DNA of 64,000 nt from Thioclava sp. ES.031 (GTDB lineage Bacteria; Pseudomonadota; Alphaproteobacteria; Rhodobacterales; Rhodobacteraceae), in NCBI RefSeq assembly GCF_002563775.1, contig NZ_PDJO01000001.1, positions 1,746,001 to 1,810,000 of the forward strand. The letters run 5' to 3'. The position numbers were made by a program, and so were the translations under genes. Of this stretch, positions 1,878 to 23,976 are shown piece by piece. Numbering within the stretch: the stretch's first letter is position 1; every line of letters starts with the position of its first letter. The notes beneath the pieces were generated by a model. The model saw only the letters and a program-made list of their open reading frames with translations. It did not search any database and had not been told where the DNA came from.

Positions 1878-2711
1878 TCAGGTCCGGTTCAGCCGCACGA
1901 ATAGCAGCCAGAACATCGCGCTGAGAAGCGGCAGGGTCACCAGCAAAACGAGGGAAGACAGGGCGAAGATGATCGGCACCTGGCTTTGCTGGGCTGCCGC
2001 CTGCACCCAGTTCCACACCGGCATGGTCTCTGATGTGCCGCGCAGGAAGATCGTGCGCATGACCTCGTTGAAGGACATCAGGAAGCCGAAGAGCCCGGCG
2101 CTGACGATGCCCGGCATCAGGATCGGAAACTCGATGTCCTTGAAGACGCGCCAGTCGCTCGCCCCGAGGTCGCGTCCCGCCTCGATCAGGGTATGGTCGA
2201 AGCGCAGGGTCACGACGAGCACGATCAGGAGGGCGAAGGGCAGGGCCCAGACGTAATGCCCCACGGCGATCGACCAGAAGCCCAGATCGAGACCGAGCAC
2301 GGACTGGCTGAAGATGAAGAGGGCAGCGCCCATCGACATGCCGGGCACGAAGAGCGGCAAGACGAAGACGAGGAGCATCGGGCCGGGGCTGGCCATACGC
2401 GGCACCGCCCGCCCGATCACGGTCGCGGTGATCGCGCTGACCAGACCGACGATCAGGCCGATCACGACGCTGGAGACGAAGGGCATGTGCCAATCGCTGC
2501 TGGCGAACAGCGCCTGATAGTGGCGCAGCGAGAAGGCGCCGGGGATGCCCGAAAGCGGATCGTTCGAGATCGACAGCAAGACGAGCCACAGCAGCGGGAA
2601 ATAGATCAGCCCCAGCATGGCGATGCCCATCCATTTGCCGAGCCGCTTCCAGTTCGGGTTGTAACTGGTTTCGAGCGGAACGGGGCGTGTCGTGGCGGTC
2701 ATGTCGGTCAT
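1878..2711 (-). CDS. ABC transporter permease, PotC-like
   Basis: A 277-residue inner-membrane permease with about six transmembrane helices. It has the conserved EAA-type loop (EAGRDLGASDWRVFKDIEFP region, key residues E-A-x-x-D-L-G-A) that docks on the ATPase subunit. It belongs to the polyamine/opine/2-aminoethylphosphonate (PotC) family. It is the last gene of a minus-strand operon that begins with pxpA near 8.3 kb, 22 nt after the partner permease gene. The substrate is unknown; the catabolic genes across the divergent promoter suggest an amine or amide rather than plain spermidine. Confidence 0.9.
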   Translation of the reverse strand: MTDMTATTRPVPLETSYNPNWKRLGKWMGIAMLGLIYFPLLWLVLLSISNDPLSGIPGAFSLRHYQALFASSDWHMPFVSSVVIGLIVGLVSAITATVIGRAVPRMASPGPMLLVFVLPLFVPGMSMGAALFIFSQSVLGLDLGFWSIAVGHYVWALPFALLIVLVVTLRFDHTLIEAGRDLGASDWRVFKDIEFPILMPGIVSAGLFGFLMSFNEVMRTIFLRGTSETMPVWNWVQAAAQQSQVPIIFALSSLVLLVTLPLLSAMFWLLFVRLNRT

Positions 2712-2733: not shown

Positions 2734-3666
2734 TCATCGGCGCAGCGCGAGTCTCGCGCCGCCGAGGTGGCGCAGGATGAGGGCCATCACCGCGAGGATC
2801 AGCAGCAGGAGACCGATCACGAAAGCGGAGAGGGCGGCGACGACGGGATAGCGCAGGGCGGTGTAGGCGCTCTCGATCGAGCTCGACAGCAGGTTCACGA
2901 AGCCGCCGCCCAGCATTCCCGGCTCGACCCAAGCGGCCAGTGCCGGTCCGAGCGTGAAGACGAAGCCCGCCATCACGCCGGGCAGGGAGAGGGGCACGAT
3001 CACCTTCCACAGGGTCTGTGCCGGGGTCGCCCCGAGGTCGTTGGAGGCTTCGATCAGGGTGTCGTCGATGAGGATGATAGCCATGTAGATCGGCAGGACC
3101 ATCGGGGGGAACAGGGCCGGGATCATCCCGAAATGCACCGAGAATTCCGAGTAGAGCAGCCAGTCGAGCGGCGCATCCGTGATCCCGGTCGACATGAGGA
3201 CGGTGTTGATCAGGCCGTTCTGACCAAGGATCGCGCGCCAGACGATCGTGCGCGACGACAGGTCGAGGAAGAACGGAATGGTCAACAGCGCGAGGAACAC
3301 GGCACGGGCCATCTGGCTGCGCGCTCCCTTGGCGAGCCAGAGCGCGAAGGGGAAGCCGATGGCGAGCTCGATCAGCGTCACGGTCAGCGCGATGCGCAGC
3401 GTGCGTAGCGTGACCTCCCAGCGCCCCGAGGCGAAGAGGCCCTTCCACGTCTCGAGGCTCGGCTCGTAGATCGTCTGGAAATACTCGGTCGAAAAGAAGC
3501 TGTAGACGAACAGGATGAGGAGCGGAACGATCACCAGAATGGTCCAGGCCGCGCAGATCACCCATAGCGCCACGGTTGCGACGGGGATTCTCATGGCAGG
3601 CTTGCGGCCTTTGTCCTTCGGTCTGGTCTGCGTCATGGGCGCATCCAATTCGGCGTTCATGGTCAT
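2734..3666 (-). CDS. ABC transporter permease, PotB-like
   Basis: A 310-residue permease with an N-terminal cytosolic segment rich in K/R, about six transmembrane helices and an EAA loop (E-A-S-N-D-L-G-A-T-P near residue 210). It pairs with the PotC-like permease to form the heterodimeric channel of a Pot-type importer. It lies 73 nt after the solute-binding protein gene and 22 nt before the second permease gene, in the same transcription unit. Confidence 0.9.
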   Translation of the reverse strand: MTMNAELDAPMTQTRPKDKGRKPAMRIPVATVALWVICAAWTILVIVPLLILFVYSFFSTEYFQTIYEPSLETWKGLFASGRWEVTLRTLRIALTVTLIELAIGFPFALWLAKGARSQMARAVFLALLTIPFFLDLSSRTIVWRAILGQNGLINTVLMSTGITDAPLDWLLYSEFSVHFGMIPALFPPMVLPIYMAIILIDDTLIEASNDLGATPAQTLWKVIVPLSLPGVMAGFVFTLGPALAAWVEPGMLGGGFVNLLSSSIESAYTALRYPVVAALSAFVIGLLLLILAVMALILRHLGGARLALRR

Positions 3667-3739: not shown

Positions 3740-4948
3740 TCAGGCGTTGAGGAACCGCTGCCACTGCTCCTCGATGTCCGACGCGTTCTGCGGCGTCGTG
3801 GTCGAGGTGAAGGGCTTCTCGAACTTGCGGTTCACCTTGGCTTCGGTGGCGCGCAGGGCTTCGATTTCCGCGTCGCTCCAGCCGTTCTCTTCGGCATAGG
3901 CCACGCCGAGGTCCATGTTCGGGCCGGCATAGCCACGATCGCGGGCCTGAAGCGCACGGTATTCGCCGCCGAGGAAGTAGTTCAGCATCTTGTAGATGTT
4001 GTCGACATTGTCGCGTTCCATCGCGGGGGCGGCGACATAGGCGCCGTGGCCCCATTTGAAGTAGCCCTCGACGGTGTAGGCGTAACGCGTCGCGTTCTCG
4101 CCCAGCACGTTGTTGGCTTCACGCACTGCCGGTTCCCAGCAGTTGATCACGTCGACTTCCTTGTTGGTCAGAAGCTGGATCTGCTCCTCGAAGGCGCCGT
4201 AGAGCGTGCGGAACTGACCCGCTTTCTTGCGCTCGATGAGGAAGTCCGCGACCATCGCCGCTTCTTCGGCGGTCATGTCCGAGACATTCGCAATGTCGGC
4301 CTTGCCGGTTTCCTTCAGGTAGAGCGCGGCGGAGGGCATCGAGTAGCTCCAGCCCTGCCCGTAGGCGACGCGGCCGCGGGTGGCTTCGTCTTCGAACATC
4401 AGCGACCACGAGAGCTCTTCTTCGCTTTCGGGATCGACGCCGATGGCTTCGGGCACGTAGCCGAAGCTGTCGGCGTTGCCGATGACCGGAACGCCCCACT
4501 GGTTGCCCTCTTCGTCGGTGACGACAGGCGAGCGTTTCCAGGCATCGGACGTGCGCTCCCAAAGGGTGAGTTCGGGGTGGTCCGTCTCGATCTTGGCATA
4601 CATGCCGCGCGGGCCGAGGATGTCTTCGGTGCCGCTCTCGAAGATGTAGATGTCGGTGCTGTCACCGAGGTTCGACGCCATGATGTCGCGCATGAAAACG
4701 CCGACATCGTTCGAGGTGCCGTTGAGTTCGCACTTGATGCCGAGGCTGGCCTCGAGCGGCGACCAATCCTTGAGCGCGGCGGTCGGAACGCCGTAAGCCC
4801 GCACCACGGGCATATCCTGCGCCATCGCACCACGGGGGGCGAGACCGGTAGCCGCGAGGGCTGCCGTCCCGGCAACCGCGCCCATGCCGCGAAGCATGTT
4901 GCGCCGGGTCAGTTCGATCTGGTCGAACGTAGAGTGCTTGTCTTTCAT
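3740..4948 (-). CDS. Periplasmic solute-binding protein of Pot-type ABC importer (Tat signal)
   Basis: A 402-residue extracellular solute-binding protein of the PotD-like family. The N-terminus has a twin-arginine export motif (TRRNMLRGMG, residues ~14-23), then a hydrophobic stretch and an Ala-x-Ala cleavage site near residue 43, so it is probably folded in the cytoplasm before export. Acidic and aromatic residues in the mature part (for example NADSFGYVPEA and GWSYSMPSA) resemble amine-binding family members, but the ligand cannot be named. Its gene is between the ATPase and the permeases (82 nt and 73 nt gaps). Confidence 0.88.
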   Translation of the reverse strand: MKDKHSTFDQIELTRRNMLRGMGAVAGTAALAATGLAPRGAMAQDMPVVRAYGVPTAALKDWSPLEASLGIKCELNGTSNDVGVFMRDIMASNLGDSTDIYIFESGTEDILGPRGMYAKIETDHPELTLWERTSDAWKRSPVVTDEEGNQWGVPVIGNADSFGYVPEAIGVDPESEEELSWSLMFEDEATRGRVAYGQGWSYSMPSAALYLKETGKADIANVSDMTAEEAAMVADFLIERKKAGQFRTLYGAFEEQIQLLTNKEVDVINCWEPAVREANNVLGENATRYAYTVEGYFKWGHGAYVAAPAMERDNVDNIYKMLNYFLGGEYRALQARDRGYAGPNMDLGVAYAEENGWSDAEIEALRATEAKVNRKFEKPFTSTTTPQNASDIEEQWQRFLNA

Positions 4949-5030: not shown

Positions 5031-6116
5031 TCAGCCCTTGTGTTCGGGGAAAATCACGGCGTCCGAGAGCTTCCAGCCAACCCGCGAGATGGCGCCCTTC
5101 TCGTTGGGCGCACCGTGCCAGGACCGCAGACGCAGCGTGCCCGCTTTCGTCTCGACCATCATGTCGGTGTATTTCCCGCGATAGACGCGGTTGGACAGGG
5201 TGGCATCGAGCCCGTCCTCGTCGGCTGCGACCGGTCCGATCCGTTCGGCCCGGATGGCAAGGTTGATGGCGCCGCCCGGCTGAATGTCAGAGGTGGCGAG
5301 AGTGCCGCGCACGACTGCGCTGCCGACCAGTTCCACCTCGCCGATCTCGCCGTCCTTGCGCAGAAGCTTGCCGTCGAGAATGTTCTCGTAGCCCATGAAA
5401 TCCGCAGCGAACCGCGTGACCGGACGGTCGAACAGGTCGAGCGGCGCGCCGCTCTGCTCGATCCGGCCGTGCTTCATCAGAACGACGCGGTCGCTCATGG
5501 TGAGCGCTTCTTCCTGAGAGTGCGTGATGTAGATGAAGGTCATGCCGAGTTTGCGCTGAAGCTCCATGAGTTCCAGCTGCATGTCCTGGCGCAACCGCTC
5601 GTCCAGCGCGCCGAGCGGCTCGTCGAGAAGCAGGATCGCAGGGCGGGTGACGACCGCGCGCGCAAGTGCCACACGTTGGCGTTCCCCGCCCGAGAGCTGC
5701 CCGATGGAGCGGTCGGCCTTGGCCCCGAGCTGGACCATCTCCAGCGCGCGCTTCGCTTCGGCTGTCGAATCCTGAGCCGTCCGGCCGCGGATGCGCAGGC
5801 CATAGGCCACGTTCTCGATCACGTTCATATGCGGGAACAGCGCGTAATTCTGGAACACCGTCGTGCAGTTGCGCTTGGCGGCAGGCAGTCCCACGACATC
5901 TTCGCCCCCGATGCGCAGGCGGTCGACCGAATAGGGCGTTTCCAGCCCGGAGATCACGCGCAGCATCGTCGTCTTCCCCGAGCCGCTGGAGCCGAGGATC
6001 GTCAGGAATTCGCCCTTCGCCGCAGACAGCGACACGTCCGACAGCGCGGTGACCTTGCCGTACTTGTGGACGACATTGCTGACCTCGAGCATGGGTTCGC
6101 TATGCATATCCTTCAT
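5031..6116 (-). CDS. ABC transporter ATP-binding protein, PotA-like
   Basis: A 361-residue ATPase with Walker A (GSSGSGKTT), ABC signature (LSGGERQRVALARA), Walker B (ILLLDEPLGALD) and switch His (ITHSQEEAL), followed by a C-terminal TOBE regulatory domain from about residue 275. This is the standard layout of PotA/MalK-type importers and powers the two permeases downstream. It starts 22 nt after the end of the GroEL-like gene, so the chaperonin-like gene is physically inside the transporter operon. Confidence 0.92.
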   Translation of the reverse strand: MKDMHSEPMLEVSNVVHKYGKVTALSDVSLSAAKGEFLTILGSSGSGKTTMLRVISGLETPYSVDRLRIGGEDVVGLPAAKRNCTTVFQNYALFPHMNVIENVAYGLRIRGRTAQDSTAEAKRALEMVQLGAKADRSIGQLSGGERQRVALARAVVTRPAILLLDEPLGALDERLRQDMQLELMELQRKLGMTFIYITHSQEEALTMSDRVVLMKHGRIEQSGAPLDLFDRPVTRFAADFMGYENILDGKLLRKDGEIGEVELVGSAVVRGTLATSDIQPGGAINLAIRAERIGPVAADEDGLDATLSNRVYRGKYTDMMVETKAGTLRLRSWHGAPNEKGAISRVGWKLSDAVIFPEHKG

Positions 6117-6138: not shown

Positions 6139-7614
6139 TCAGTGAGAGTGATGGGGCGTGCGCAGCACGGCCGTCTCAAGCGTCAGAATCCGCAATGCGA
6201 GCGACAGCGCGAGGTCGAGCACGTCGCGCGAAAGCCGGGCCGGGTCCCGCACAGAGTCGGCGGGAAGGACGCCGTCTAGGGGCTCGAGCCCGGCGTTGCG
6301 TCGCAAGGCGCGTCCAGTCGCGCGCAGGGCTTCGCCAACAAGGGCCCGGGCGGCGCGATCGGTAGGGTCGGACGGACGTTCGGCTTCAAGGCGCGCGGCA
6401 ATTTCGGTAAGGCCGACGCCTCCACCTGTCAGCGTGCCGCCAGTTCGCGCCGAGCGCACCGAGGCAAGCGCACGTGCCATCCGTGCGCGCAAATCCGGTT
6501 CGGTCCTGTGCGGACCGATGAAAAGCTCGACCCAACGGCCCGAAAGACGGGCGTGGCGCCGTTGTGCATGTTCGCGGTCGAGAGCGAGATAGCGGTTGCG
6601 CTCGATTTCGTGGGCGATGTCTTGAAGCCGCAGCGCGATGGCCGCGGCGTCGCCGGCGGGGGCGGAGAAGGTCACGTGATCTCCGCTGCGCCGGAACGCC
6701 TCTGCCGCACCGAGATGCTCGGGCGTGAGCGTGTCGAGTGTCTGGCCGGTCTCGTCATCCACGAGGGTCGCGCCGGTCGCGAGCGCGAGGTCGCGCAGGA
6801 TTTCGGCGGCGCGCGGGCCCTTGTCGCGGGGTGTGATCGCGGCCACGCGCAGAACGCCAGCCTGCCGGTTGCGCTCCAGAAGCTGCTTGGCGGCGCCTTC
6901 GAGCCCCCGCGCCGCGATCAGCAGCGACTTGCCGCTCTGCGCGAAACCTTCGATCACGGGGGCGAGGCGTTTGAAATCGGTCAGGATGTCGTTGACCACC
7001 AGAACGTGGACCGCATCCATATGCGTCAGCACTCCCGACAGGAGCGGCTCCATGTCGGCGGAGAAGCCTTCGACATGATCGAGGCGCAGTCCGGGCTCCG
7101 GCTGGTCGCTCAGCTCGACATGACCCTCGGACCCTGCGAGTTCGAGCGCGCGGTCCAGGGCATCCGTCGCGTCGCCGGGAAGCGCGGCTGCGGCGAGGAT
7201 GCCTTCGATATTGCTCGTGTCCTGCGTGACGGCCGCGAAATGGCGCGTGATCTCGGGGCGCAGCCCGTCGACCGAGCGGATAAGATGGGACGGATGCACG
7301 CCTGCGGCGACGGACCGGCGTCCGGCAGCCAAGGCTGCGCCGGTCATCACGGCCATGCGCGAGGTGCCGTCGCCCAGATCGCGGTCCGCCGACACCAGCG
7401 CTTCCCGCAGAAGCACCTCGCTCGTCCCGTCCGCGCAGAAATGACGGGCGATTTCCGTGCCTGTGGTGGCGCGTCGCACGCGCGCGCCCAATGTGTAGAG
7501 CGCCGCGCGCCCGTCGGGGCCGAGCTTGGCCGCAATCGCGCGCAGAACCGGCGCGAGATCGTCCGTCAGCTCCGCCTGAAGCGAATTGCCCGATATGATG
7601 CGCACGGCGGTCAT
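6139..7614 (-). CDS. Divergent GroEL/Cpn60-like protein lacking the hydrolytic aspartates
   Basis: A 491-residue protein recognisable as a group I chaperonin along its whole length. LGPDG at 31-35 matches GroEL LGPKG; GDGTS at 81-85 matches GroEL GDGTT, keeping the Asp87 equivalent; an apical-like stretch has G-K-S-L-L-I-A-A-R; GGG at 397-399 and VRDP near 454-458 match nucleotide-contact positions (GroEL 414-416 and Asp495). By manual alignment the GroEL Asp52 position is Thr51 and the Asp398 position is Arg381, so both aspartates needed for ATP hydrolysis are gone. The Gly-Gly-Met tail is replaced by a His-rich end (PHHSH). It overlaps pxpA by 4 nt (ATGA), implying translational coupling, and precedes the ABC ATPase gene by 22 nt. 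No groES-like gene is next to it. A role in assembling the neighbouring enzymes is inference. Confidence 0.85.
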   Translation of the reverse strand: MTAVRIISGNSLQAELTDDLAPVLRAIAAKLGPDGRAALYTLGARVRRATTGTEIARHFCADGTSEVLLREALVSADRDLGDGTSRMAVMTGAALAAGRRSVAAGVHPSHLIRSVDGLRPEITRHFAAVTQDTSNIEGILAAAALPGDATDALDRALELAGSEGHVELSDQPEPGLRLDHVEGFSADMEPLLSGVLTHMDAVHVLVVNDILTDFKRLAPVIEGFAQSGKSLLIAARGLEGAAKQLLERNRQAGVLRVAAITPRDKGPRAAEILRDLALATGATLVDDETGQTLDTLTPEHLGAAEAFRRSGDHVTFSAPAGDAAAIALRLQDIAHEIERNRYLALDREHAQRRHARLSGRWVELFIGPHRTEPDLRARMARALASVRSARTGGTLTGGGVGLTEIAARLEAERPSDPTDRAARALVGEALRATGRALRRNAGLEPLDGVLPADSVRDPARLSRDVLDLALSLALRILTLETAVLRTPHHSH

Positions 7615-8345
7615 GCGGTGGTCAGCCTCGCCTCGTCCGTGAGAACCTGATGAACCGCCTTCGCGACCGCGATCGCGTTCGGCGTGTCGGAATGGACGCA
7701 GATGCTTTCGGCGACGACCGACACGTCCTTGCCGCTCACGGCGGTGGTCATGCCTTCGAGCACGGCGCGGCGGACTTTCTCGGCGACCGCCTCCGGCGCA
7801 ACGCTCTCATGCGCGCGCGAAATGATCTGGCGTCCGTCGTCATCATAGTCGAGATCGGCATAGAACTCGCAACTGAAAGTGATGCCGCGTCGGGTGAACA
7901 CCTCCGACATGCAGCAGTCGGAATAGGCGATCACCGGCAGACCGAGCGCCTCGGCCGCATCGGCAACGCCTTCCGCGACATGCATCTCGTTCTGCGCCAT
8001 TCCGAAGAGCGCGCCGTGCGGCTTGATGTGCGAGAGCGCAAGACCTTCGGCCGCGGCCAGCGCCTGCAGCGCGCCGGTCTGATACATGATGAGCGCGTAG
8101 ATCTCGTCACGGCGCATCTGCATCCGCCGCCGCCCGAAGCCCTCACGGTCGGGCAGGCCGGGGTGGGAGCCGACATTGATGCCGGCGGCCTTCGCCTTGC
8201 GCAGCGTGTCGCGCATGACCACGGGATCGGAGGCGTGAAAGCCGCAGGCGATGTTGGCGTGGGTGACGAAGGGCATGCAGGCCGTGTCGTCGCCGAACGC
8301 GTAGATCCCGAAGGATTCGCCCATGTCGCAATTGATCGTCACCAT
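7611..8345 (-). CDS. pxpA: 5-oxoprolinase subunit A (LamB/YcsF family)
   Basis: A 244-residue LamB/YcsF protein with the family N-terminus (TINCDMGESFGIY), the metal/catalytic segments (NIACGFHASDP, SHPGLPDREGFGRR) and HIKPHGALF. In PxpABC it is the subunit that, with PxpB and PxpC, opens the 5-oxoproline ring to glutamate using ATP. The start at 8345 is set by a GGAGG at 8351-8355 on the complementary strand. An upstream in-frame extension to 8420 runs through the operator and is unlikely. Unusually, pxpA is split from pxpBC, which are on the other side of the regulator gene. First gene of the minus operon. Confidence 0.9.
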   Translation of the reverse strand: MVTINCDMGESFGIYAFGDDTACMPFVTHANIACGFHASDPVVMRDTLRKAKAAGINVGSHPGLPDREGFGRRRMQMRRDEIYALIMYQTGALQALAAAEGLALSHIKPHGALFGMAQNEMHVAEGVADAAEALGLPVIAYSDCCMSEVFTRRGITFSCEFYADLDYDDDGRQIISRAHESVAPEAVAEKVRRAVLEGMTTAVSGKDVSVVAESICVHSDTPNAIAVAKAVHQVLTDEARLTTA

Positions 8346-8673: not shown

Positions 8674-9336
8674 TCAGGCTCCGTCGGTCAGCGGCATCAG
8701 CGGAAGCAATGCTTTGGCGGCGATGTCGATATCTTGCCGCATGAACTGGCCTGCTGCTTCAGCGTCGCGCCGCTCGATCGCCGCGAGGATGTTGCGGTGT
8801 TCGTCATTGGCGTGGTGTTTGAAGTGCTCATCGTCGAAAAGGCCGGTAAAAACCGGGCCAACTTTCAACCATAAGTCATTGATAAGCTGCAGAAGTTCTG
8901 GATTGTTCGCGCGGCGGTAAACGGTGAAGTGGAATTCGCGGTTGAGGGTCAGGTAGCCTGCGGAATCATGGCGTTTCGCGACCTCTTCCACCCGCGCGGT
9001 CAGCTCCGAGAGCTGCGCGATTTCCTCCTCGGTGAACTTGTCGACGGCCAGTTCCGCCGCCATTCCTTCAAGCGCGGCGCGGATTGGCATGAGCTCGCGA
9101 AAACGTCTTTGCGTCATGCGGGGCACCACGATCGACCGATTCGGCAGCACCGTCAGAAGGCGCTCGGCGACGAGCCGTTGAAGCGCTTCGCGGATCGGGG
9201 TGGCGGAGATCCCGTAATTCGCCGCGAGCGTGCGGATAACCAGCGGCTCCATCGGCATGAAGAGGCCCTCCTGCAATCCGTCCCGGATCGCGTGATACGC
9301 CTGGTCGCTCAATGACTGATGCTCGATCTTCTTCAC
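8674..9336 (-). CDS. GntR-family regulator with FCD ligand domain
   Basis: A 220-residue regulator. Residues ~1-70 form the GntR winged helix-turn-helix (ISATPIREALQRLVAERL), and ~80-215 form an FCD domain. The FCD metal/ligand residues include His in NREFHF and His in DEHRNI, typical of regulators that bind small carboxylates or amino-acid derivatives. It is encoded between the divergent pxpA and pxpB operons but on the same strand as pxpA. Two copies of one palindrome in the two promoters are its likely operators, so it probably releases both operons when the substrate or an intermediate binds. Confidence 0.9.
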   Translation of the reverse strand: MKKIEHQSLSDQAYHAIRDGLQEGLFMPMEPLVIRTLAANYGISATPIREALQRLVAERLLTVLPNRSIVVPRMTQRRFRELMPIRAALEGMAAELAVDKFTEEEIAQLSELTARVEEVAKRHDSAGYLTLNREFHFTVYRRANNPELLQLINDLWLKVGPVFTGLFDDEHFKHHANDEHRNILAAIERRDAEAAGQFMRQDIDIAAKALLPLMPLTDGA

Positions 9337-9435: not shown

Positions 9436-9508
9436 CCGACTAGGGAAGGTCCTGCGACAAAGTCGTGCGGATGCGTCCCAGAACATAGCCGAGAGGAGAA
9501 CAGGTCGA

Positions 9509-10375
9509 ATGCTTCACGAAGCTCTGCGATTTTATCCCGGAGGAGATCGCGCGATCGAGGTCGAGCTGGGTGATGGGATGGATTTCACCATCAATTTCAT
9601 CGTTCACCGGCTTGTCGCTGCTGTGCGAGAGGCGCGGATCGCGGGCCTTGTCGATCTGATCCCCGAACTGGCCTCGTTCCAGGTGAACTACGATCCCGAC
9701 CGTATCTCCTACGAAGACCTGTGCCACGAGATCGAAGCGCTTTATGCCGAGATGGGGCGCGGGGTGACCGGAACGCTCGCAAGCCGGCTGATCACCATTC
9801 CCGTGCTCTATTTCGATGAGAAGACGGAAGCCTGCGTCGAAGACTACCGCAAGGACTATCCCGAAAAGACGCCCGATCCCGAGTTGATCTGCGAGTTGAA
9901 CGGGTTGCCGGATCGTGCCGCACTGCGCCGCCGTCACGCCTCGACCGAATACTGGGTTGCGGCGCTCGGCTTCTGGCCCGGTCTGTGCTCGCTGCTCGCG
10001 CTCAATCCCACCGCACGGATCATCGCACCGAAATACAATCCGCCGCGCACCCATACCCCGAAAGGGGCGGTGGGTCTCGGTGGTGCGTTGACCTGTATCT
10101 ATCCGGACGCGACGCCGGGCGGCTATCAGCTTATCGGTCATACGCCGGCGCCGACCTATGATGGGGCGCAGCGGCTTCCCGACTTCGCGGACAGCCTCGC
10201 GCTGTTCCGGGCTGGCGACCGGGTTCGGTTCAAGCCCGTCGAACGCGATGAGTACAACGAGATCGAAACGCGCGTCGCCGAGGGCTCCTTCCGCCACGAT
10301 ATCGTCGATTACCAAGTCTTCTCGGTCGACCGCTATCTCGACTGGGCCAAGGCGCAAGAGGAGGCCTCCAAATGA
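9509..10375 (+). CDS. pxpB: 5-oxoprolinase subunit B / urea-carboxylase CT-like subunit 1 (KipI family)
   Basis: A 288-residue KipI/AHS1-family protein. The family core is visible late in the chain (G-A-V-G-L-G-G-A-L-T-x-I-Y-P, then T-P-G-G-Y-Q-L-I-G-H-T-P). The usual GFxPGFxYL segment is altered here (GFWPGLCSLLALNP), which suggests a separate subfamily with a different substrate. It is longer than typical PxpB (about 220-240). The start at 9509 follows GAGAGGAGAA at 9491-9500. It overlaps pxpC by 4 nt. KipI and KipA homologues also make up the carboxyltransferase domain of urea carboxylase, which matters because biotin carboxylase parts are encoded downstream. Confidence 0.85.
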   Translation: MLHEALRFYPGGDRAIEVELGDGMDFTINFIVHRLVAAVREARIAGLVDLIPELASFQVNYDPDRISYEDLCHEIEALYAEMGRGVTGTLASRLITIPVLYFDEKTEACVEDYRKDYPEKTPDPELICELNGLPDRAALRRRHASTEYWVAALGFWPGLCSLLALNPTARIIAPKYNPPRTHTPKGAVGLGGALTCIYPDATPGGYQLIGHTPAPTYDGAQRLPDFADSLALFRAGDRVRFKPVERDEYNEIETRVAEGSFRHDIVDYQVFSVDRYLDWAKAQEEASK

Positions 10376-11346
10376 GCCGCACCATCACCACGGTCAAGCC
10401 GGGTCTTCAGACTTGTGTGCAGGAGCTTCCGGGGCGCGAGGGCTTTCTGGAGCAGGGGTTTCCGCTCTCGGGTCCCTTCGACGCCTGGTCGTTCCGTCAG
10501 GCCAATATCCTTGTCGGCAATGACCGTGACACAGCTGCGCTGGAATGCCAGTTCATGGGGCCGACCCTGACCTTCGACGCCGACATGCTGATCGCCGTCA
10601 CCGGCGCGGACATGTCGCCGTCGGTCGATGGCGCGCCGATCCCGATGTACGCGACCGTCGCGGTCTCGGCGGGCCAGACGCTGACCATGGGCTTCGCAAA
10701 GACCGGCGCGCGGGCCTATCTCGCCGTCTCCGGCGGGATCGCGACCGAGCCGGTTCTGGGTTCTCGCGCCGTGTTCCATCAGGCGGGTGTCGGCGGTCAC
10801 GCCCTCATCGCCGGTCAGGCGCTGCCGGTCGGCGCCTCGGAGGCGAGCGCCCTCTACGTTCTGCCCGAATCCGCGCGCCCGGTGATCGGCACCGATCGCG
10901 TTTGGGAGGTCGAGGCGCTGTGCGGGCCGAATGACGACTGGCTCGACGAGGCGACGATCGAGATGTTCTTTTCGACCGACTGGCAGATCCAGACAAAGAG
11001 CAGTCGCACCGGTATTCGCCTGACCGGCCCGGAATTCGGGTTTTCCGACAAGGCATTGAACAAGTCCCCGGATCACGGGCAGGACCCGTCGAACATCATC
11101 GATCACGGCTATCCGATGGGGGCTGTGAACCTTGCCGGTCAGACGCCGATCATCCTCGTCAATGACGCGCCGAGCACCGGCGGTTTCATCAACCCCTTCA
11201 CCATCGCGAGCGCCGCCTTCTGGAAGCTGGCGCAGGCCAAGCCGAACGAGACCCTGCGTTTTCGCCGCGTGGACCGCGACGGCGCAGCGGCGCTGCGGGC
11301 CGAAATCGATGCAAAAACCAAACCCGAGATTCTGCAAAATGCCTGA
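10372..11346 (+). CDS. pxpC: 5-oxoprolinase subunit C / urea-carboxylase CT-like subunit 2 (KipA family)
   Basis: A 324-residue KipA/AHS2-family protein with the N-terminal pattern V-K-P-G-L-x-T-x-V-Q, then G-x-P-L-S-G-P-F-D and L-E-C-Q-F-M-G-P. It pairs with PxpB either in ATP-dependent 5-oxoprolinase or as the carboxyltransferase half of a biotin-dependent enzyme. Start and PxpB stop share ATGA (10372-10375), so the two subunits are translationally coupled. Its last codons overlap the kinase gene by 8 nt. Confidence 0.87.
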   Translation: MSRTITTVKPGLQTCVQELPGREGFLEQGFPLSGPFDAWSFRQANILVGNDRDTAALECQFMGPTLTFDADMLIAVTGADMSPSVDGAPIPMYATVAVSAGQTLTMGFAKTGARAYLAVSGGIATEPVLGSRAVFHQAGVGGHALIAGQALPVGASEASALYVLPESARPVIGTDRVWEVEALCGPNDDWLDEATIEMFFSTDWQIQTKSSRTGIRLTGPEFGFSDKALNKSPDHGQDPSNIIDHGYPMGAVNLAGQTPIILVNDAPSTGGFINPFTIASAAFWKLAQAKPNETLRFRRVDRDGAAALRAEIDAKTKPEILQNA

Positions 11347-12421
11347 AGCGATGATGACAGACGGCTCTGCGGTCGACCAAGACTCCCTTCTGGCTGGACT
11401 GTTGGCCAGCGCGCCGCCGCGGCTGACGCCGGATCAGGCCCAGACGCTCTTGCACGATCACTGGGGGATCGACGGTTCCGCACATGAAATCGCCTGCGAG
11501 CGGGACCAGAATTTCCGCATCGTGACCGGGACCGGGCAGGACTATATCCTGAAGATCTCGAACGCGGTCGAGGATCCGCTCAACACGGAGTTCCAGACCG
11601 CGGCGCTGCGCTGGGTTGCCCGGGTCGATCCCGAGCTTCCACTTCCGCGCGCGGTGGCCGCGCTCGACGGCGCGTTCACGCAGCGGCTGCAGCTGCCGTC
11701 GGGGCGCACCAGCGTGGTGCGGGTTCTGTCCTGGCTTGACGGCACGCCGCTGCATCACGTGCCGATGACGGCGCAGATGCAATCCGGGATCGGCGCGATG
11801 ACGGCGCGGCTGGGCCGGGCGCTCGAAGGGTTCGACCATCCGGGCGCGCGCCACGAGCTACTGTGGGACATCCGGCATCTCCCGCGCCTGCGCCCGTTGA
11901 CCGAGAGCCTCGGCGAAGACGCGGTGGCGGATGCGGTGCGGCGCGAGCTTGACCATTTCGAGGCGCAGGTTGCCCCTGCGCTCGGCGGTCTGCGCCGTCA
12001 GGTGATCCATAACGACATGAATCACCACAACATACTCGTGGATGCGAGCGAACAGGACCGGATCACCGGCATTCTCGATTTCGGCGACATGGTGAACACT
12101 CATCTCGCCATCGATGTGGCCGTCGCCGCCTCCTATCTGGCGAGCGAAGACGATCCGCTCGGCGCCATCGCGCGTCTCGTGGCCTCCTATCACTCCGTCC
12201 TGCCGCTCGAGCGCAAGGAGGTGGAGGTGCTACGCGATCTGACGGTGGCCCGGCTCGTGGCCTCGATCACGATCACCAACTGGCGTGCGGCGCGCTACCC
12301 CGAGAACGCCGCATACATCCTGCGCAACAACGGGCCGGCCCGCACGGCCATGGCCCGTTTCGCGACCCTTCCCACCCAGGACGTGACCCGGGCTTTGCTC
12401 AGCGCGTGCGATATGGAGTGA
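11339..12421 (+). CDS. APH-fold kinase, hydroxylysine-kinase-like
   Basis: A 360-residue aminoglycoside-phosphotransferase-fold kinase. The catalytic loop reads VIHNDMNHHNIL, with His224, Asp226 and Asn231. The metal-binding Asp is in ILDFGDM near residue 247, and a nucleotide-binding lysine is likely in YILKIS. Vertebrate hydroxylysine kinase and bacterial relatives share this layout and act on small hydroxylated amines. The next gene is a class-III aminotransferase relative; in vertebrates such pairs make a phosphorylated amino alcohol and then remove phosphate and ammonia. The start at 11339 overlaps pxpC; later ATGs at 11351 and 11354 are possible. Substrate not established. Confidence 0.8.
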   Translation: MPEAMMTDGSAVDQDSLLAGLLASAPPRLTPDQAQTLLHDHWGIDGSAHEIACERDQNFRIVTGTGQDYILKISNAVEDPLNTEFQTAALRWVARVDPELPLPRAVAALDGAFTQRLQLPSGRTSVVRVLSWLDGTPLHHVPMTAQMQSGIGAMTARLGRALEGFDHPGARHELLWDIRHLPRLRPLTESLGEDAVADAVRRELDHFEAQVAPALGGLRRQVIHNDMNHHNILVDASEQDRITGILDFGDMVNTHLAIDVAVAASYLASEDDPLGAIARLVASYHSVLPLERKEVEVLRDLTVARLVASITITNWRAARYPENAAYILRNNGPARTAMARFATLPTQDVTRALLSACDME

Positions 12422-12425
12422 ACGC

Positions 12426-13751
12426 ATGAATATTGACACCGGCATGGTGAACGCCTTCCAAGAAGGCGCCACGGATCTCGACCCTGAAACGCGCGAGATG
12501 ATCGAGCGGCGCAAGGCGCTGCTTGGTCCGGCGTATCGTCTCTTCTACGACAAGCCGTTGCATCTCGTGCGCGGCGAGGGGGCCTGGCTCTTCGATCAAG
12601 AAGATAACGCCTATCTCGATGCCTATAACAACGTGACCTCGATCGGGCATTGCCACCCAAAGGTGGTCGAGGCGATCGCGACGCAGGCCGGCATCCTCGC
12701 GACCAACACCCGCTATATCCACGGCAGCATCCTCGATTATGCCGAACGGCTTCTGAACACGATGCCGGACGAGATCGGGCACATGATGTTCACCTGCACC
12801 GGGTCCGATGCCAACGACCTCGCCGTGCGTATCGCGCAGGCCTATACCGGGGGGCTCGGGATCGTCGTGACGGAGACGGCCTACCACGGCATCACCCAGT
12901 CGGTATCCGAGTTTTCGCCCTCGCTCGGCGCGAATGTCGATCTCGGTCCGCATGTGCGCACCGTGCCCGCGCCGGATGCCTATCGTCAGGGCGAGGAAAT
13001 GGCGGCTAACTTCGCCACCGCCGTCGAGGCCGCCTTCGCGGATCTGAAGCGGCACGGCATCAAGCCCGCGCTCTTCATCTGCGACGGTATCTTCGCCAGC
13101 GACGGGGTCTTCGACGGGCCGCGCGGTTTCCTCAAGGGGGCGGTCGACGCGGCACATGCGGCTGGTGCTGTCTACATCGCCGACGAAGTGCAGTCGGGCT
13201 TCGGGAGGACCGGAGACGCGCTCTGGGGCTTCCAGCGTCATGACGTGGTCCCCGACCTCGTCACCATGGGCAAGCCGATGGGCAATGGCTACCCGGTCGC
13301 GGGCGTTGCCGTGCGCCCGGAGCTGGTCGAGGAATTCGGGCGCAAGGCGCGATATTTCAACACTTTCGGGGGCAACGCGGTCGCGATCGCCGCCGCGACC
13401 GCCGTGCTCGACGTGATCGAGGGCGAGGGGCTGACCGAGAACGCGCGCGAGATCGGCGCTTATCTCCAGGACGGGATCCGCGCTCGGGCGGAGGCCCATC
13501 CTTGCATCGGCGACGTCCGGGGCGCGGGGCTGTTCCTCGGGGTCGAGATCGTGTCTGACCGCGCCGCCAAGACGCCGGATGCGACCGCGACGTCGGCCAT
13601 CGTCAACGGTCTGCGGGAGGAGCGTGTGCTGATCTCGGCCTGCTCGAAGACGCATAACGTGCTCAAGATACGCCCGCCGCTCGTCTTCACCCGCGAGAAT
13701 GCCGACCAGTTTCTGGCCGCCTTCGACCGGGTTCTCGCCCGCATCAAGTAA
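12426..13751 (+). CDS. Class-III PLP aminotransferase or phospholyase (AGXT2L-like)
   Basis: A 441-residue fold-type I PLP enzyme with the class-III pattern: S-I-G-H-C-H-P early, C-T-G-S-D-A-N-D-L-A for cofactor phosphate, I-A-D-E-V-Q-S-G-F-G-R-T-G, and the Schiff-base lysine Lys283 in MGKPMGNGYP. The MGKPMGNG form and the CTGSDAND motif resemble ethanolamine-phosphate and phosphohydroxylysine phospholyases. It is encoded 4 nt after the kinase gene, which supports a kinase-then-lyase pair. A plain transaminase cannot be excluded. Confidence 0.85.
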   Translation: MNIDTGMVNAFQEGATDLDPETREMIERRKALLGPAYRLFYDKPLHLVRGEGAWLFDQEDNAYLDAYNNVTSIGHCHPKVVEAIATQAGILATNTRYIHGSILDYAERLLNTMPDEIGHMMFTCTGSDANDLAVRIAQAYTGGLGIVVTETAYHGITQSVSEFSPSLGANVDLGPHVRTVPAPDAYRQGEEMAANFATAVEAAFADLKRHGIKPALFICDGIFASDGVFDGPRGFLKGAVDAAHAAGAVYIADEVQSGFGRTGDALWGFQRHDVVPDLVTMGKPMGNGYPVAGVAVRPELVEEFGRKARYFNTFGGNAVAIAAATAVLDVIEGEGLTENAREIGAYLQDGIRARAEAHPCIGDVRGAGLFLGVEIVSDRAAKTPDATATSAIVNGLREERVLISACSKTHNVLKIRPPLVFTRENADQFLAAFDRVLARIK

Positions 13752-13775: not shown

Positions 13776-14024
13776 ATGGCCATCACGCAAATCGAAGCTG
13801 CACTTCCGGGGCTCGTCTTTCACCGCCCGTCGCCTGAATCCGAGCCGTTCAAGGCGCCCGGCGATGCCGTGGCTGTGGGGGATACTCTCGCGCTCGTGGA
13901 GGTCATGAAGTCCTACATTCCTATCGAGGCCGAGGTGGCGGGAACTTTCAAGGGTTACGCCGCGCCCGATGGCGAAAGCATCGAGCCGGGCGACGCGCTG
14001 TGCGAGATCGAGGTGTCCGAATGA
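13776..14024 (+). CDS. Biotin carboxyl carrier protein (short)
   Basis: An 82-residue single biotinyl domain. The biotin-accepting residue is Lys45 in EVMKS, where most carriers have EAMKM; the lysine and the preceding Met are kept, but the flanking Ala and Met are changed. There is no long Ala/Pro linker as in AccB of fatty-acid synthesis, so this is a dedicated carrier for the local carboxylase. The gene overlaps the biotin carboxylase gene by 4 nt (ATGA at 14021). Confidence 0.88.
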   Translation: MAITQIEAALPGLVFHRPSPESEPFKAPGDAVAVGDTLALVEVMKSYIPIEAEVAGTFKGYAAPDGESIEPGDALCEIEVSE

Positions 14025-15409
14025 CGTCGGAAAAGCCCGGCATCAGGAAGCTCCTGATCGCGAACCGCGGGGAGATCGCGGTGCGCATCATTCGTGCGGC
14101 GCGAGATCTGGGTATTCGGACGGTTCAGGTCGTTTCGGAAGCCGACCGCGATATGCTGGCCGCGCGGATGGCCGATGAGGTGGTCGTGATCGGGCCGGCG
14201 CCGGCGACGAAATCCTATCTCGACATCGACGCCGTCCTGATGGCTGTCGCCGAGAGCGGCGCGGACGCGGTGCATCCCGGCTACGGCTTCTTGTCCGAGA
14301 GCGCAGAGTTCGCCCGCCGGGTCAGCGAGATGGGCGTGACCTTCTGCGGCCCGGACGCGGCGACCATCGAGCGGATGGGTGACAAGGTGAACGCGCGCAG
14401 CGCTGCGATTGCGGCGGGCGTTCCGGTCGTGCCCGGCAGCGACGGGCGTGTCGCCGATCTAGACGCTGCGGTCGACGTGGCCGAGGGCATCGGCTACCCG
14501 GTGATGATCAAGGCTGCCGCTGGCGGAGGCGGGCGCGGTATTCGTATCGCGGAGACCCGCGAGGAACTGATCGCTGCGCTCCCGACGGCGATGAACGAGG
14601 CGCGGGCCGGGTTTGGCGATGACGGCGTCTATCTCGAGGCCTTCATCCGCAACGCGCGTCATATCGAAGTGCAGATTCTCGGCGATGGAACCCGTGCGGT
14701 CCACCTGTTCGAGCGGGAGTGCTCCTTGCAGCGCCGCCGCCAGAAGGTCTGGGAAGAAGCGCCAGCCGTGGCGCTGCCCGATTCCGTGCGTGCCGATCTG
14801 TGCGCCGCCGCGGTGCGCCTGGCCGAGGGCGTTTCGTATCGCGGGGCAGGGACGCTGGAATATCTCTACGACATGGACCGAGAAGCGTTCTATTTCATCG
14901 AGATGAATACGCGCATCCAGGTCGAGCACCCGATCACCGAGATGATCACCGGAGTCGATCTCCTGCGCGAGATGCTTCTGATCATGGGCGGTGCCAAGCT
15001 GTCGCTTGCGCAGGGGGACATCATCGCGCAGGGCCACGCCATCGAAGTGCGCATCAATGCCGAGGATCCGGACAGGAGCTTCTTTCCCGCGCCCGGCATT
15101 CTCGAAACGCTGAAAGTTCCGGGTGGCCCCGGTGTTCGCTTCGACACCGGCGTGAGCGAAGGCGATACCATTCCGCCCTTTTACGACTCGCTTCTCGGGA
15201 AGCTCATCGTCTGGGATCGCACGCGCGACGGGGCATTGGCGAGGCTCGCAGGCGCGCTCGGTGAGCTCGAGATCGGTCCGAATCCGACCACAGCGAGCCT
15301 TCATGCCGCCTTGTTGACAGCGCCCGATGTCGTCTCCGGCACGGTGTCGACCCTCTGGCTCGAAGATTGGCTGGCGAAACGCACCGAAGAAGCGCGCAAG
15401 TCAGCCTGA
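14021..15409 (+). CDS. Biotin carboxylase subunit (AccC-like)
   Basis: A 462-residue biotin carboxylase: N-terminal pre-ATP-grasp domain (KLLIANRGEIAVRIIRAARDLG), ATP-grasp with the glycine-rich loop KAAAGGGGRGIR, bicarbonate/metal segment FIEMNTRIQVEHPITEMITG, and the C-terminal B domain. It charges biotin on the carrier protein with CO2 from bicarbonate using ATP. It has no linked carboxyltransferase of the acyl-CoA type nearby; PxpB and PxpC in the same operon are the plausible acceptor-side partners. Last gene of the plus operon; I see no clear terminator after it. Confidence 0.9.
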   Translation: MTSEKPGIRKLLIANRGEIAVRIIRAARDLGIRTVQVVSEADRDMLAARMADEVVVIGPAPATKSYLDIDAVLMAVAESGADAVHPGYGFLSESAEFARRVSEMGVTFCGPDAATIERMGDKVNARSAAIAAGVPVVPGSDGRVADLDAAVDVAEGIGYPVMIKAAAGGGGRGIRIAETREELIAALPTAMNEARAGFGDDGVYLEAFIRNARHIEVQILGDGTRAVHLFERECSLQRRRQKVWEEAPAVALPDSVRADLCAAAVRLAEGVSYRGAGTLEYLYDMDREAFYFIEMNTRIQVEHPITEMITGVDLLREMLLIMGGAKLSLAQGDIIAQGHAIEVRINAEDPDRSFFPAPGILETLKVPGGPGVRFDTGVSEGDTIPPFYDSLLGKLIVWDRTRDGALARLAGALGELEIGPNPTTASLHAALLTAPDVVSGTVSTLWLEDWLAKRTEEARKSA

Positions 15410-23794: not shown

Positions 23795-23871
23795 GCGGTT
23801 GTAGCTCAGTTGGTTAGAGTACCGGCCTGTCACGCCGGGGGTCGCGGGTTCGAGCCCCGTCAACCGCGCCA
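23795..23871 (+). tRNA. tRNA-Asp (anticodon GTC), copy 1
   Basis: A 77-nt cloverleaf with encoded CCA. The acceptor GCGGTTG pairs with CAACCGC, and the anticodon loop is CTGTCAC. Identical to the next copy. Confidence 0.96.
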
Positions 23872-23899
23872 TCATCCGGATCGCCCCGAGCGCAGATGC

Positions 23900-23976
23900 G
23901 CGGTTGTAGCTCAGTTGGTTAGAGTACCGGCCTGTCACGCCGGGGGTCGCGGGTTCGAGCCCCGTCAACCGCGCCA
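23900..23976 (+). tRNA. tRNA-Asp (anticodon GTC), copy 2
   Basis: Sequence identical to copy 1 over all 77 nt, 28 nt downstream. Probably one transcript. Confidence 0.96.

What the first reader, a model, noticed from the sequence alone, without database searches (positions are those of the whole stretch)
6139..7614. GroEL-like protein without hydrolytic aspartates, encoded inside a transporter/oxoprolinase operon
The sequence shows a full-length chaperonin relative with GDGTS and GGG nucleotide motifs, but Thr51 at the GroEL Asp52 position and Arg381 at the Asp398 position. Those aspartates are needed for ATP hydrolysis in GroEL. It is coupled to pxpA by ATGA and sits 22 nt before the ABC ATPase gene, with no groES beside it. 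A non-hydrolysing or differently powered chaperonin devoted to one metabolic complex would be new to my knowledge.
Basis: partly seen in the sequence, partly recalled or inferred. Interest (0 to 1): 0.88.

Follow-up and report, generated by a model that had tools for sequence, protein, structure and literature searches.

The report
Chaperonin relative missing its catalytic aspartates
A bacterial relative of the protein-folding ring GroEL has kept its nucleotide pocket but lost the acids that split ATP, and it is usually found next to the genes of one nutrient importer, so it probably works as a non-cycling helper rather than a normal folding machine.

Summary
The 491-aa ORF at 6139-7614 (minus strand) is a full-length, divergent Cpn60. 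Two alignment methods place Thr51 and Arg381 at GroEL Asp52 and Asp398. All 39 family rows lack both Asp, while Asp87, Gly32, Gly414, Gly416 and Asp495 are invariant; 101 of 101 GroEL controls keep all three Asp. The GroES/substrate groove and apical hinge are also altered. The gene is under purifying selection (dN/dS 0.067), and its genome has an ordinary groES-groEL.

Loss was stepwise. In a 73-row clade Asp398 is lost in 64 and Asp52 in 44; all 44 also lost Asp398. A sister subclade begins with both intact.

The commonest neighbour is the ABC importer (25 of 26 loci), ahead of PxpA (21 of 26). Some members sit near HyuA/HyuB genes instead of Pxp.

Best reading: an ATP-binding, non-hydrolysing pseudo-chaperonin that assembles or stabilises its operon's importer. 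Precedents are operon-dedicated MmoG/MimG and the hydrolysis-poor BBS chaperonin-like proteins of eukaryotes. It is a new variant of a known kind. Function is inferred, and no structure could be predicted.

The parts
6139..7614 (-). divergent Cpn60 (pseudo-chaperonin), 491 aa
7516..7524 (-). LGP phosphate-binding loop (residues 31-33; GroEL L31-G32-P33)
   Evidence: G32 and P33 39/39 in the family; coordinates
7462..7464 (-). Thr51 at the GroEL Asp52 position
7357..7374 (-). GDGTSR (81-86): Asp87 equivalent kept, Thr91 equivalent is Arg86
   Evidence: D 39/39, R 39/39; coordinates
6871..6876 (-). Glu247-Arg248 at GroEL Val263-Val264 (substrate/GroES groove, role recalled)
   Evidence: E 34/39, R 36/39; coordinates
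6532..6537 (-). Arg360-Trp361 at GroEL Gly375-Val376 (apical hinge, role recalled)
   Evidence: R 28/39, W 38/39; coordinates
6472..6474 (-). Arg381 at the GroEL Asp398 position
6418..6426 (-). GGG (397-399; GroEL 414-416)
   Evidence: first and third Gly 39/39, middle Gly 21/39; coordinates
6244..6246 (-). Asp457 at GroEL Asp495 (adenine contact, recalled)
   Evidence: 39/39; coordinates
5031..6116 (-). ABC importer ATPase (PotA-like; Walker A, LSGG and LLLDEP present)
3740..4948 (-). solute-binding protein with twin-arginine-type N terminus; no Pfam or NCBIfam family
   Evidence: SBP role from its place beside the permeases
2734..3666 (-). ABC permease A
1878..2711 (-). ABC permease B
7611..8345 (-). 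PxpA/LamB-YcsF protein, overlapping the chaperonin start as ATGA (ATG start assumed; ORF listed from 8420)
8674..9336 (-). GntR/FCD regulator
9482..10375 (+). PxpB-like carboxyltransferase subunit (start assumed; ORF listed from 9419)
10372..11346 (+). PxpC-like carboxyltransferase subunit
11420..12421 (+). APH-type kinase (start assumed; ORF listed from 11132)
12426..13751 (+). class III PLP enzyme, closest to phospholyase structures 5g4i and 6tor
13776..14024 (+). biotin carboxyl carrier protein
14000..15409 (+). biotin carboxylase

Best explanation
The gene encodes a pseudo-chaperonin. It descends from a GroEL duplicate that became tied to an ABC-importer gene set. It probably keeps the Cpn60 fold and still binds Mg-nucleotide, but it no longer hydrolyses ATP by the GroEL mechanism. 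It has also lost the hydrophobic groove that binds GroES and unfolded clients. It most likely acts as an ATP-locked scaffold or holdase for its operon's own products, the importer (first of all its ATPase) being the likeliest client. SHOWN here: the homology, the residue changes, their conservation, the order of loss, the gene linkage and the purifying selection. INFERRED: the fold (no model could be run), nucleotide binding, absence of hydrolysis, oligomer state and client.
For: Homology and register. Both Asp lost in 39/39 family rows while D87, G32, P33, G414, G416 and D495 stay invariant: a pocket kept for binding, not for cleavage. GroEL D398A has ~2% ATPase (PMC3813556, passages). GroES/substrate residues replaced (V263E 34/39, V264R 36/39; Y199 and Y203 gone, F204 kept in 4/39), hinge G375R in 28/39, R197 gone in 39/39. 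Ordered loss, with D87 kept in 72 of 73 rows. dN/dS 0.067, inside the range of the twelve other operon genes (0.028-0.235). A canonical groESL can supply housekeeping folding. Importer link: an ABC ATPase in 25 of 26 loci, directly 3' in 23. All 15 SBP matches outside the window genome were fetched: 6 keep the ATPase beside the SBP and all 6 have a chaperonin; 7 lack the ATPase and none has one; 2 are cut by contig ends.
Against: No structure, oligomer or ATPase data. The client rests on gene order alone. The 17 loci found through the chaperonin hardly separate the partners (ABC ATPase 17/17, pxpA 16/17), and the loci found through the SBP are biased towards the importer. L100, an all-Asp member of the clade, lies beside HyuA/HyuB genes with no importer gene in its 16-kb stretch. 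L121 has pxpA beside an ABC ATPase-like gene and no chaperonin. pxpA is translationally coupled to it in the window. Loss of other GroEL contacts (K51, T90, adenine loop) could mean that nucleotide binding is lost too. Arg86 or other residues might support a different chemistry. The operon is patchy: of 390 genomes of the order only G000 scores above 260 bits, and 4 other genomes of its genus show only GroEL-level matches. The tree is a quick one with long branches flagged.
Confidence: 0.43

Rival explanations
1. The client is the lactam/cyclic-amide enzyme (PxpABC-BC-BCCP here, HyuA/HyuB elsewhere) rather than the importer; the protein assembles that multi-subunit ATP-dependent enzyme.
For: ATGA coupling to pxpA; pxpA in 21 of 26 loci, directly 5' in 20. 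Members without Pxp have hydantoinase/oxoprolinase genes in the same stretch: L020 and L100 HyuA+HyuB, L061 and L102 HyuB (Pfam). That enzyme family also includes ATP-dependent lactam hydrolases. L100 has such genes and no importer gene.
Against: Pxp and Hyu are unrelated proteins, so no single enzyme is constant. Of 12 stretches fetched for PxpB (13 of the 16 matches outside the window genome), 11 have no such chaperonin; their PxpB is 42-54% identical, so they are not strict orthologues, and several are short contigs. In L021 pxpB and pxpC lie in short ORFs while the chaperonin and importer ORFs are long. In L060 and L061 the Hyu gene is on the opposite strand.
Confidence: 0.27
2. It does not act alone but inserts into the housekeeping GroEL ring as an inert subunit, making mixed rings with altered specificity, much as BBS chaperonin-like proteins associate with CCT (abstracts in the listing).
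For: The strand at GroEL 518-521 (a ring contact, recalled) has a counterpart (E/D 36/39, A 35/39, V/I/L 39/39). A canonical GroEL is present in the window genome and in 4 of 4 relatives tested.
Against: Identity to GroEL is only about 27%. Salt-bridge positions are lost (R197 0/39; K327 G in 25/39) and inter-ring positions only partly kept (R452 24/39, S463 and V464 mostly gone).
Confidence: 0.12
3. It is an active, unusual ATPase chaperonin in which other residues (for example the invariant Arg86, or the Thr/Ser at 51) replace the lost aspartates.
For: T91R is invariant (39/39) and the D52 position is Thr/Ser in 37/39 rows, so the site is constrained rather than drifting.
Against: The D398 position takes Arg, Lys, His, Asn, Ala or Ser across the clade, which is no sign of a new general base; the hinge and GroES groove are changed as well.
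Confidence: 0.1
4. A decaying duplicate of groEL without function.
For: With the APH kinase it is the least conserved gene of the operon (38-63% identity in L007-L019, APH 46-62%, against 61-84% for most of the others). L022 holds only a fragment.
Against: dN/dS 0.067; long ORFs in most loci; invariant pocket residues; conserved place in the operon.
Confidence: 0.03

Closest known systems
GroEL / Cpn60 (group I chaperonin)
   Same: Full-length homology, LGP and GDG loops, GGG, D87 and D495 kept.
   Different: D52 and D398 lost, GroES/substrate groove charged, hinge Gly375 mostly Arg, adenine loop missing in the window protein, no GGM tail, no groES gene found beside it.
MmoG / MimG, GroEL-like proteins of diiron monooxygenase operons (the name MimG is recalled)
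   Same: An operon-dedicated GroEL paralogue; sMMO operons lack their own groES, and MmoG is proposed to fold or assemble that operon's complex (PMC9324122, PMC7994243; passages read).
   Different: The one comparator of this kind examined here (Caballeronia SBC2, L132, beside two Phenol_Hydrox genes) keeps D52, D87 and D398.
BBS6/MKKS, BBS10, BBS12 (eukaryotic chaperonin-like proteins)
   Same: Chaperonin descendants that keep the Gly-Pro ATP-binding dipeptide but show loss or unusual substitution of hydrolysis residues (PMC2846930, passages).
   Different: Group II/CCT descendants in eukaryotes; this is a bacterial group I descendant in an importer operon.
Chlamydial GroEL2/GroEL3
   Same: Divergent GroEL paralogues with changes in GroES-binding and ATP regions (PMC1892554, passages).
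   Different: NCBIfam GroEL3 and GroEL2 models score only 54.9 and 32.3 bits here against cut-offs of 600; the passages read do not report loss of D52 or D398, and I did not align those proteins.
GroEL D398A (laboratory mutant)
   Same: Loses the same acid; ~2% ATPase and slowed domain movement and client release (PMC3813556, passages).
   Different: A single Ala change in an otherwise intact GroEL; here the change is natural, mostly to Arg, with D52 lost as well.

Membership tests
Group I chaperonin (Cpn60/GroEL) | Full-length Cpn60_TCP1 homology | tested here: met
   Pfam 78.7 bits against 34.3; hhalign over residues 1-491
Group I chaperonin (Cpn60/GroEL) | Curated GroEL equivalog score | tested here: not met
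   TIGR02348 147.6 bits against a cut-off of 582.1; every GroEL model listed is below its cut-off
Group I chaperonin (Cpn60/GroEL) | Catalytic aspartates D52 and D398 | tested here: not met
   0 of 39 family rows have either
Group I chaperonin (Cpn60/GroEL) | Nucleotide pocket (G32, D87, G414, G416, D495) | tested here: met
   all 39/39; but K51, T90 and the adenine loop at 477-480 are not kept in the window protein
Group I chaperonin (Cpn60/GroEL) | GroES/substrate-binding hydrophobic groove | tested here: not met
   V263E 34/39, V264R 36/39, Y199 and Y203 gone, F204 4/39
Group I chaperonin (Cpn60/GroEL) | Heptameric ring and folding activity | not testable with these tools
   structure prediction switched off; needs protein
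MmoG/MimG operon-dedicated chaperonin | Lies in a soluble diiron monooxygenase operon | tested here: not met
   window neighbours are importer, Pxp, kinase, phospholyase and biotin enzymes
MmoG/MimG operon-dedicated chaperonin | GroEL-like gene without groES in a conserved operon | tested here: met
BBS-type chaperonin-like proteins | Chaperonin homology with ATP-binding Gly-Pro kept and hydrolysis residues lost | tested here: met
   G32-P33 39/39, both Asp lost; a works-like comparison only
BBS-type chaperonin-like proteins | Descent from group II/CCT chaperonins | tested here: not met
   general GroEL models score 111-160 bits, thermosome/CCT models 22-29 bits
5-oxoprolinase PxpABC (neighbouring enzyme) | NCBIfam PxpA, PxpB, PxpC models above cut-off | tested here: inconclusive
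   one PxpA subfamily model met (260 against 226); PxpB TIGR00370 96.2 against 145.55 and PxpC NF045499 155.1 against 500 not met, so the substrate may not be 5-oxoproline

The most novel reading that the evidence does not exclude
A lineage of bacterial group I chaperonins, tied to an ABC importer, has at least twice been converted from an ATP-cycling folding machine into an ATP-binding, non-hydrolysing assembly scaffold by the same ordered route: loss of Asp398 first, Asp52 second, Asp87 retained. It would be a natural counterpart of the engineered slow-ATPase GroEL mutants and a bacterial parallel to BBS pseudo-chaperonins.
Probability: 0.4. Interest if true: 0.82.

Novelty: new variant of a known kind. 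Interest (0 to 1): 0.62.

Why it matters
Chaperonin work treats ATP hydrolysis as the engine of the machine. A natural family that discards hydrolysis residues step by step while keeping the nucleotide site offers a test of what ATP binding alone can do. It supplies intermediates (both Asp, one Asp, neither) that can be expressed side by side, and a defined operon in which a client can be sought by simple deletion.

Tried and rejected
Tat idea (the chaperonin pre-folds a Tat-exported solute-binding protein): the window SBP and most of the 31 SBP ORFs read have a twin-arginine-type N terminus, but SBPs without a chaperonin have it too (L091, L093, L094, L095, L097), so it does not discriminate; not adopted. 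One-complex idea (client is PxpA): weakened, not excluded, by L020, L021, L060/L061, L099 and L100 and by PxpB stretches without the chaperonin. Survey with profile A1: the cut-off did not separate GroEL (about 250 bits) from the family (715 bits in G000); G000 alone stands above 260 bits among 390 genomes; a rough survey, not a formal absence test. GroES search in the loci: none beside the family. Substrate from PDB relatives: the SBP gave no useful match.

Row choices. A1 holds the window protein and 38 of the 43 hits (P0029, P0033, P0040, P0042 and P0043 left out; the last two served as outgroups). The tree used 88 of 90 aligned rows (P0177 and the partial L102 left out). Of the 38, 19 entered; of the 120 proteins listed (8000 passed the threshold); of the 14. 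P0049, P0169, L006, the L022 fragment and second copies of loci were not aligned. Several rows are near-duplicates; thinned at 95% identity the 73 rows become 66, with Asp398 lost in 58, Asp52 in 39 and both in 39. L120 looks like the same operon as L009 (equal contig length and identities) and was not counted twice. L059 and L096 are cut by contig ends beside the SBP. Three of the 16 PxpB matches outside the window genome (G752:C81, G675:C115, G752:C73) were not fetched.

Full report
OBSERVATION. The ORF 6139..7614 lies on the minus strand and encodes 491 aa. It matches Cpn60_TCP1 and solved GroELs, but falls below every curated GroEL cut-off listed. MAFFT and profile-profile alignment agree: Thr51 at Asp52, Arg381 at Asp398, Asp82 at Asp87. 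The start overlaps the pxpA stop as ATGA and the stop lies 22 nt before the ABC ATPase start. The genome (4.02 Mb, one contig) has one other PF00118 match, a canonical groEL with groES beside it. The best-scoring protein hit is 97% identical, from Thioclava sp. DLFJ4-1.

FAMILY. One search found 43 proteins. The alignment of the window protein with 38 of them shows, at E. coli numbering: position 52 T22 S15 N1 A1; 398 R31 N6 A2; 87 D39; 32 G39; 33 P39; 414 G39; 416 G39; 495 D39; 91 R39 (GroEL Thr). As controls, 101 GroELs listed read D/D/D at 52/87/398, T at 91, G at 375 and V at 263 and 264 in 101 of 101; they were found with an alphaproteobacterial query and so are not a sample of all GroELs. 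The GroES/substrate groove is recharged (V263E 34/39, V264R 36/39). Hinge Gly375 is Arg in 28/39 with Trp next to it in 38/39, while hinges Gly192 and Gly410 are kept. The adenine loop 477-480 is a gap in 39/39 in that alignment; in the larger alignment 6 of 40 window-clade rows place residues at 479/480. Which GroEL positions are hinges, groove or adenine contacts is recalled knowledge.

SELECTION. Against Thioclava sediminum (L006) the gene has dN 0.0114, dS 0.1710, ratio 0.067; the twelve other operon genes range from 0.028 to 0.235. It is constrained like its neighbours over short distances. Over long ones it is, with the APH kinase, the least conserved gene.

ORDER OF LOSS. Two further protein searches and SBP-guided loci gave relatives. 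In a quick maximum-likelihood tree of 88 rows, 73 noncanonical chaperonins form one clade (SH-aLRT 99); long branches were flagged, so details are provisional. States at 52/87/398: canonical and outgroup rows 15 of 15 DDD. L061 clade (19): DDD 8, DDH 4, SDH 4, DDR 2, SDR 1. L021 clade (12): DDR 6, DDK 5, DEK 1. Window clade (40): TDR 17, SDR 8, SDN 5, TDA 4, and one each of SDS, SDA, DDA, NDA, GDA, NDR. L099 is DDN, L100 DDD. Thus Asp398 is lost in 64 of 73 and Asp52 in 44 of 73; all 44 also lack Asp398, none lost Asp52 alone, and Asp87 is kept in 72 (recounted; after thinning at 95% identity 58, 39 and 39 of 66). The fewest changes are 2 for position 398 and 3 for position 52, with those columns left out of the tree. 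The L061 clade (SH-aLRT 100) runs from both Asp present to both absent within itself and so shows the same order independently of the window clade. The gene context of most of its rows is unknown; only L061 and the G611 relative were seen.

GENE LINKAGE. Seventeen loci were found through the chaperonin. The order pxpA-chaperonin-ABC ATPase-SBP-permease-permease, then gntR and pxpB-pxpC-kinase-phospholyase-BCCP-BC, recurs in most of them as far as contigs reach. A Shinella plasmid, six SBP-found loci and two loci found by PF00118 in G675 (L099, L100) bring the noncanonical chaperonin loci to 26, the window itself not counted. An ABC ATPase is present in 25, directly 3' of the chaperonin in 23. 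The exceptions are L021 (an aminotransferase-like gene between), L099 (chaperonin at the far end of a distant ABC set, ATPase 39% identical) and L100 (none in 16 kb; HyuA/HyuB instead). pxpA is present in 21 (L062 and L089), directly 5' in 20. L020 (Bradyrhizobium sp. dw_78) has HyuA/HyuB instead of Pxp. The SBP search gave 15 matches outside the window genome, all fetched: the 6 that keep the ATPase beside the SBP all have a chaperonin (L060, where only its end is on the contig, L061, L062, L088-L090); 7 without an adjacent orthologous ATPase have none in the stretch held (L091-L095, L097, L098; SBP identity in L097 and L098 only 41-42%); L059 and L096 are cut. These SBP-found loci are the main evidence for the importer over Pxp and are biased towards it, because the 17 chaperonin-found loci give 17 against 16. 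In the other direction, of 12 stretches fetched for PxpB (13 of 16 matches), 11 have no such chaperonin; those are 42-54% identical in PxpB and so not strict orthologues. L129 has a canonical GroEL on the opposite strand 2.5 kb from pxpA, and L121 has pxpA beside an ABC ATPase-like gene but no chaperonin.

DISTRIBUTION. With profile A1, 390 genomes of the order gave one score above 260 bits, G000 itself (715); 4 other genomes of its genus gave only GroEL-level matches. SBP orthologues occur in 4 of 385 class genomes and 2 of 398 phylum genomes, G000 included in both. The system is rare and patchy.

MECHANISM. GroEL D398A retains about 2% of ATPase, with slowed apical movement and client release (PMC3813556, passages). 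A natural protein lacking both Asp, with an altered apical hinge and no GroES groove, is unlikely to run the encapsulation cycle. What is preserved is the phosphate loop, Asp87 (a Mg ligand, recalled) and Asp495. I therefore propose an ATP-binding, non-cycling scaffold or holdase for importer assembly. The fold, nucleotide binding, oligomer state and client are inferences.

KNOWN PARALLELS. MmoG is an operon-dedicated GroEL relative without groES (PMC9324122 and PMC7994243, passages). A comparable gene found here beside a diiron monooxygenase keeps all three Asp (L132). BBS and CCT8L proteins keep the ATP-binding Gly-Pro, with hydrolysis residues unusual or lost (PMC2846930, passages). Chlamydial GroEL2/3 differ in GroES and ATP regions (PMC1892554, passages). 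A review of atypical type I chaperonins showed no such case in the passages read (PMC5904260). The listings of the ten literature searches showed no bacterial chaperonin family of this sort; the library lacks most subscription papers and preprints, and only listings were seen for all but the six papers named in this report.

VERDICT. New variant of a known kind.

Noticed in passing
window 11420-13751: Kinase (APH-type) plus class III PLP enzyme closest to phospholyases 5g4i and 6tor: the operon may degrade a hydroxylated amine, not simply 5-oxoproline.
   Followed up: partly
window 3740-4948: The presumed solute-binding protein matches no Pfam or NCBIfam family at E 0.001 and no solved structure better than E 0.0039, yet orthologues recur in several proteobacterial lineages; its N terminus LTRRNML resembles a Tat signal.
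   Followed up: partly
L021 16294-18816: In a Roseovarius MAG pxpB and pxpC appear only as short ORFs while the chaperonin (D52 kept, D398 to Arg) and importer ORFs are long; decay or assembly error.
   Followed up: no
L099, L100, L101, L102: Genomes G675 and G611 carry extra chaperonin paralogues, some near HyuA/HyuB genes or another ABC transporter; a wider link between chaperonin paralogues and hydantoinase/oxoprolinase enzymes may exist.
   Followed up: partly
L091-L095, L097, L098: SBP-permease-permease sets without an adjacent orthologous ATPase and without a chaperonin in the order of G675; where their ATPase is encoded was not looked for.
   Followed up: no
window 23795-23976: Two tRNA-Asp (gtc) genes in tandem, 28 nt apart, with equal Rfam scores.
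   Followed up: no
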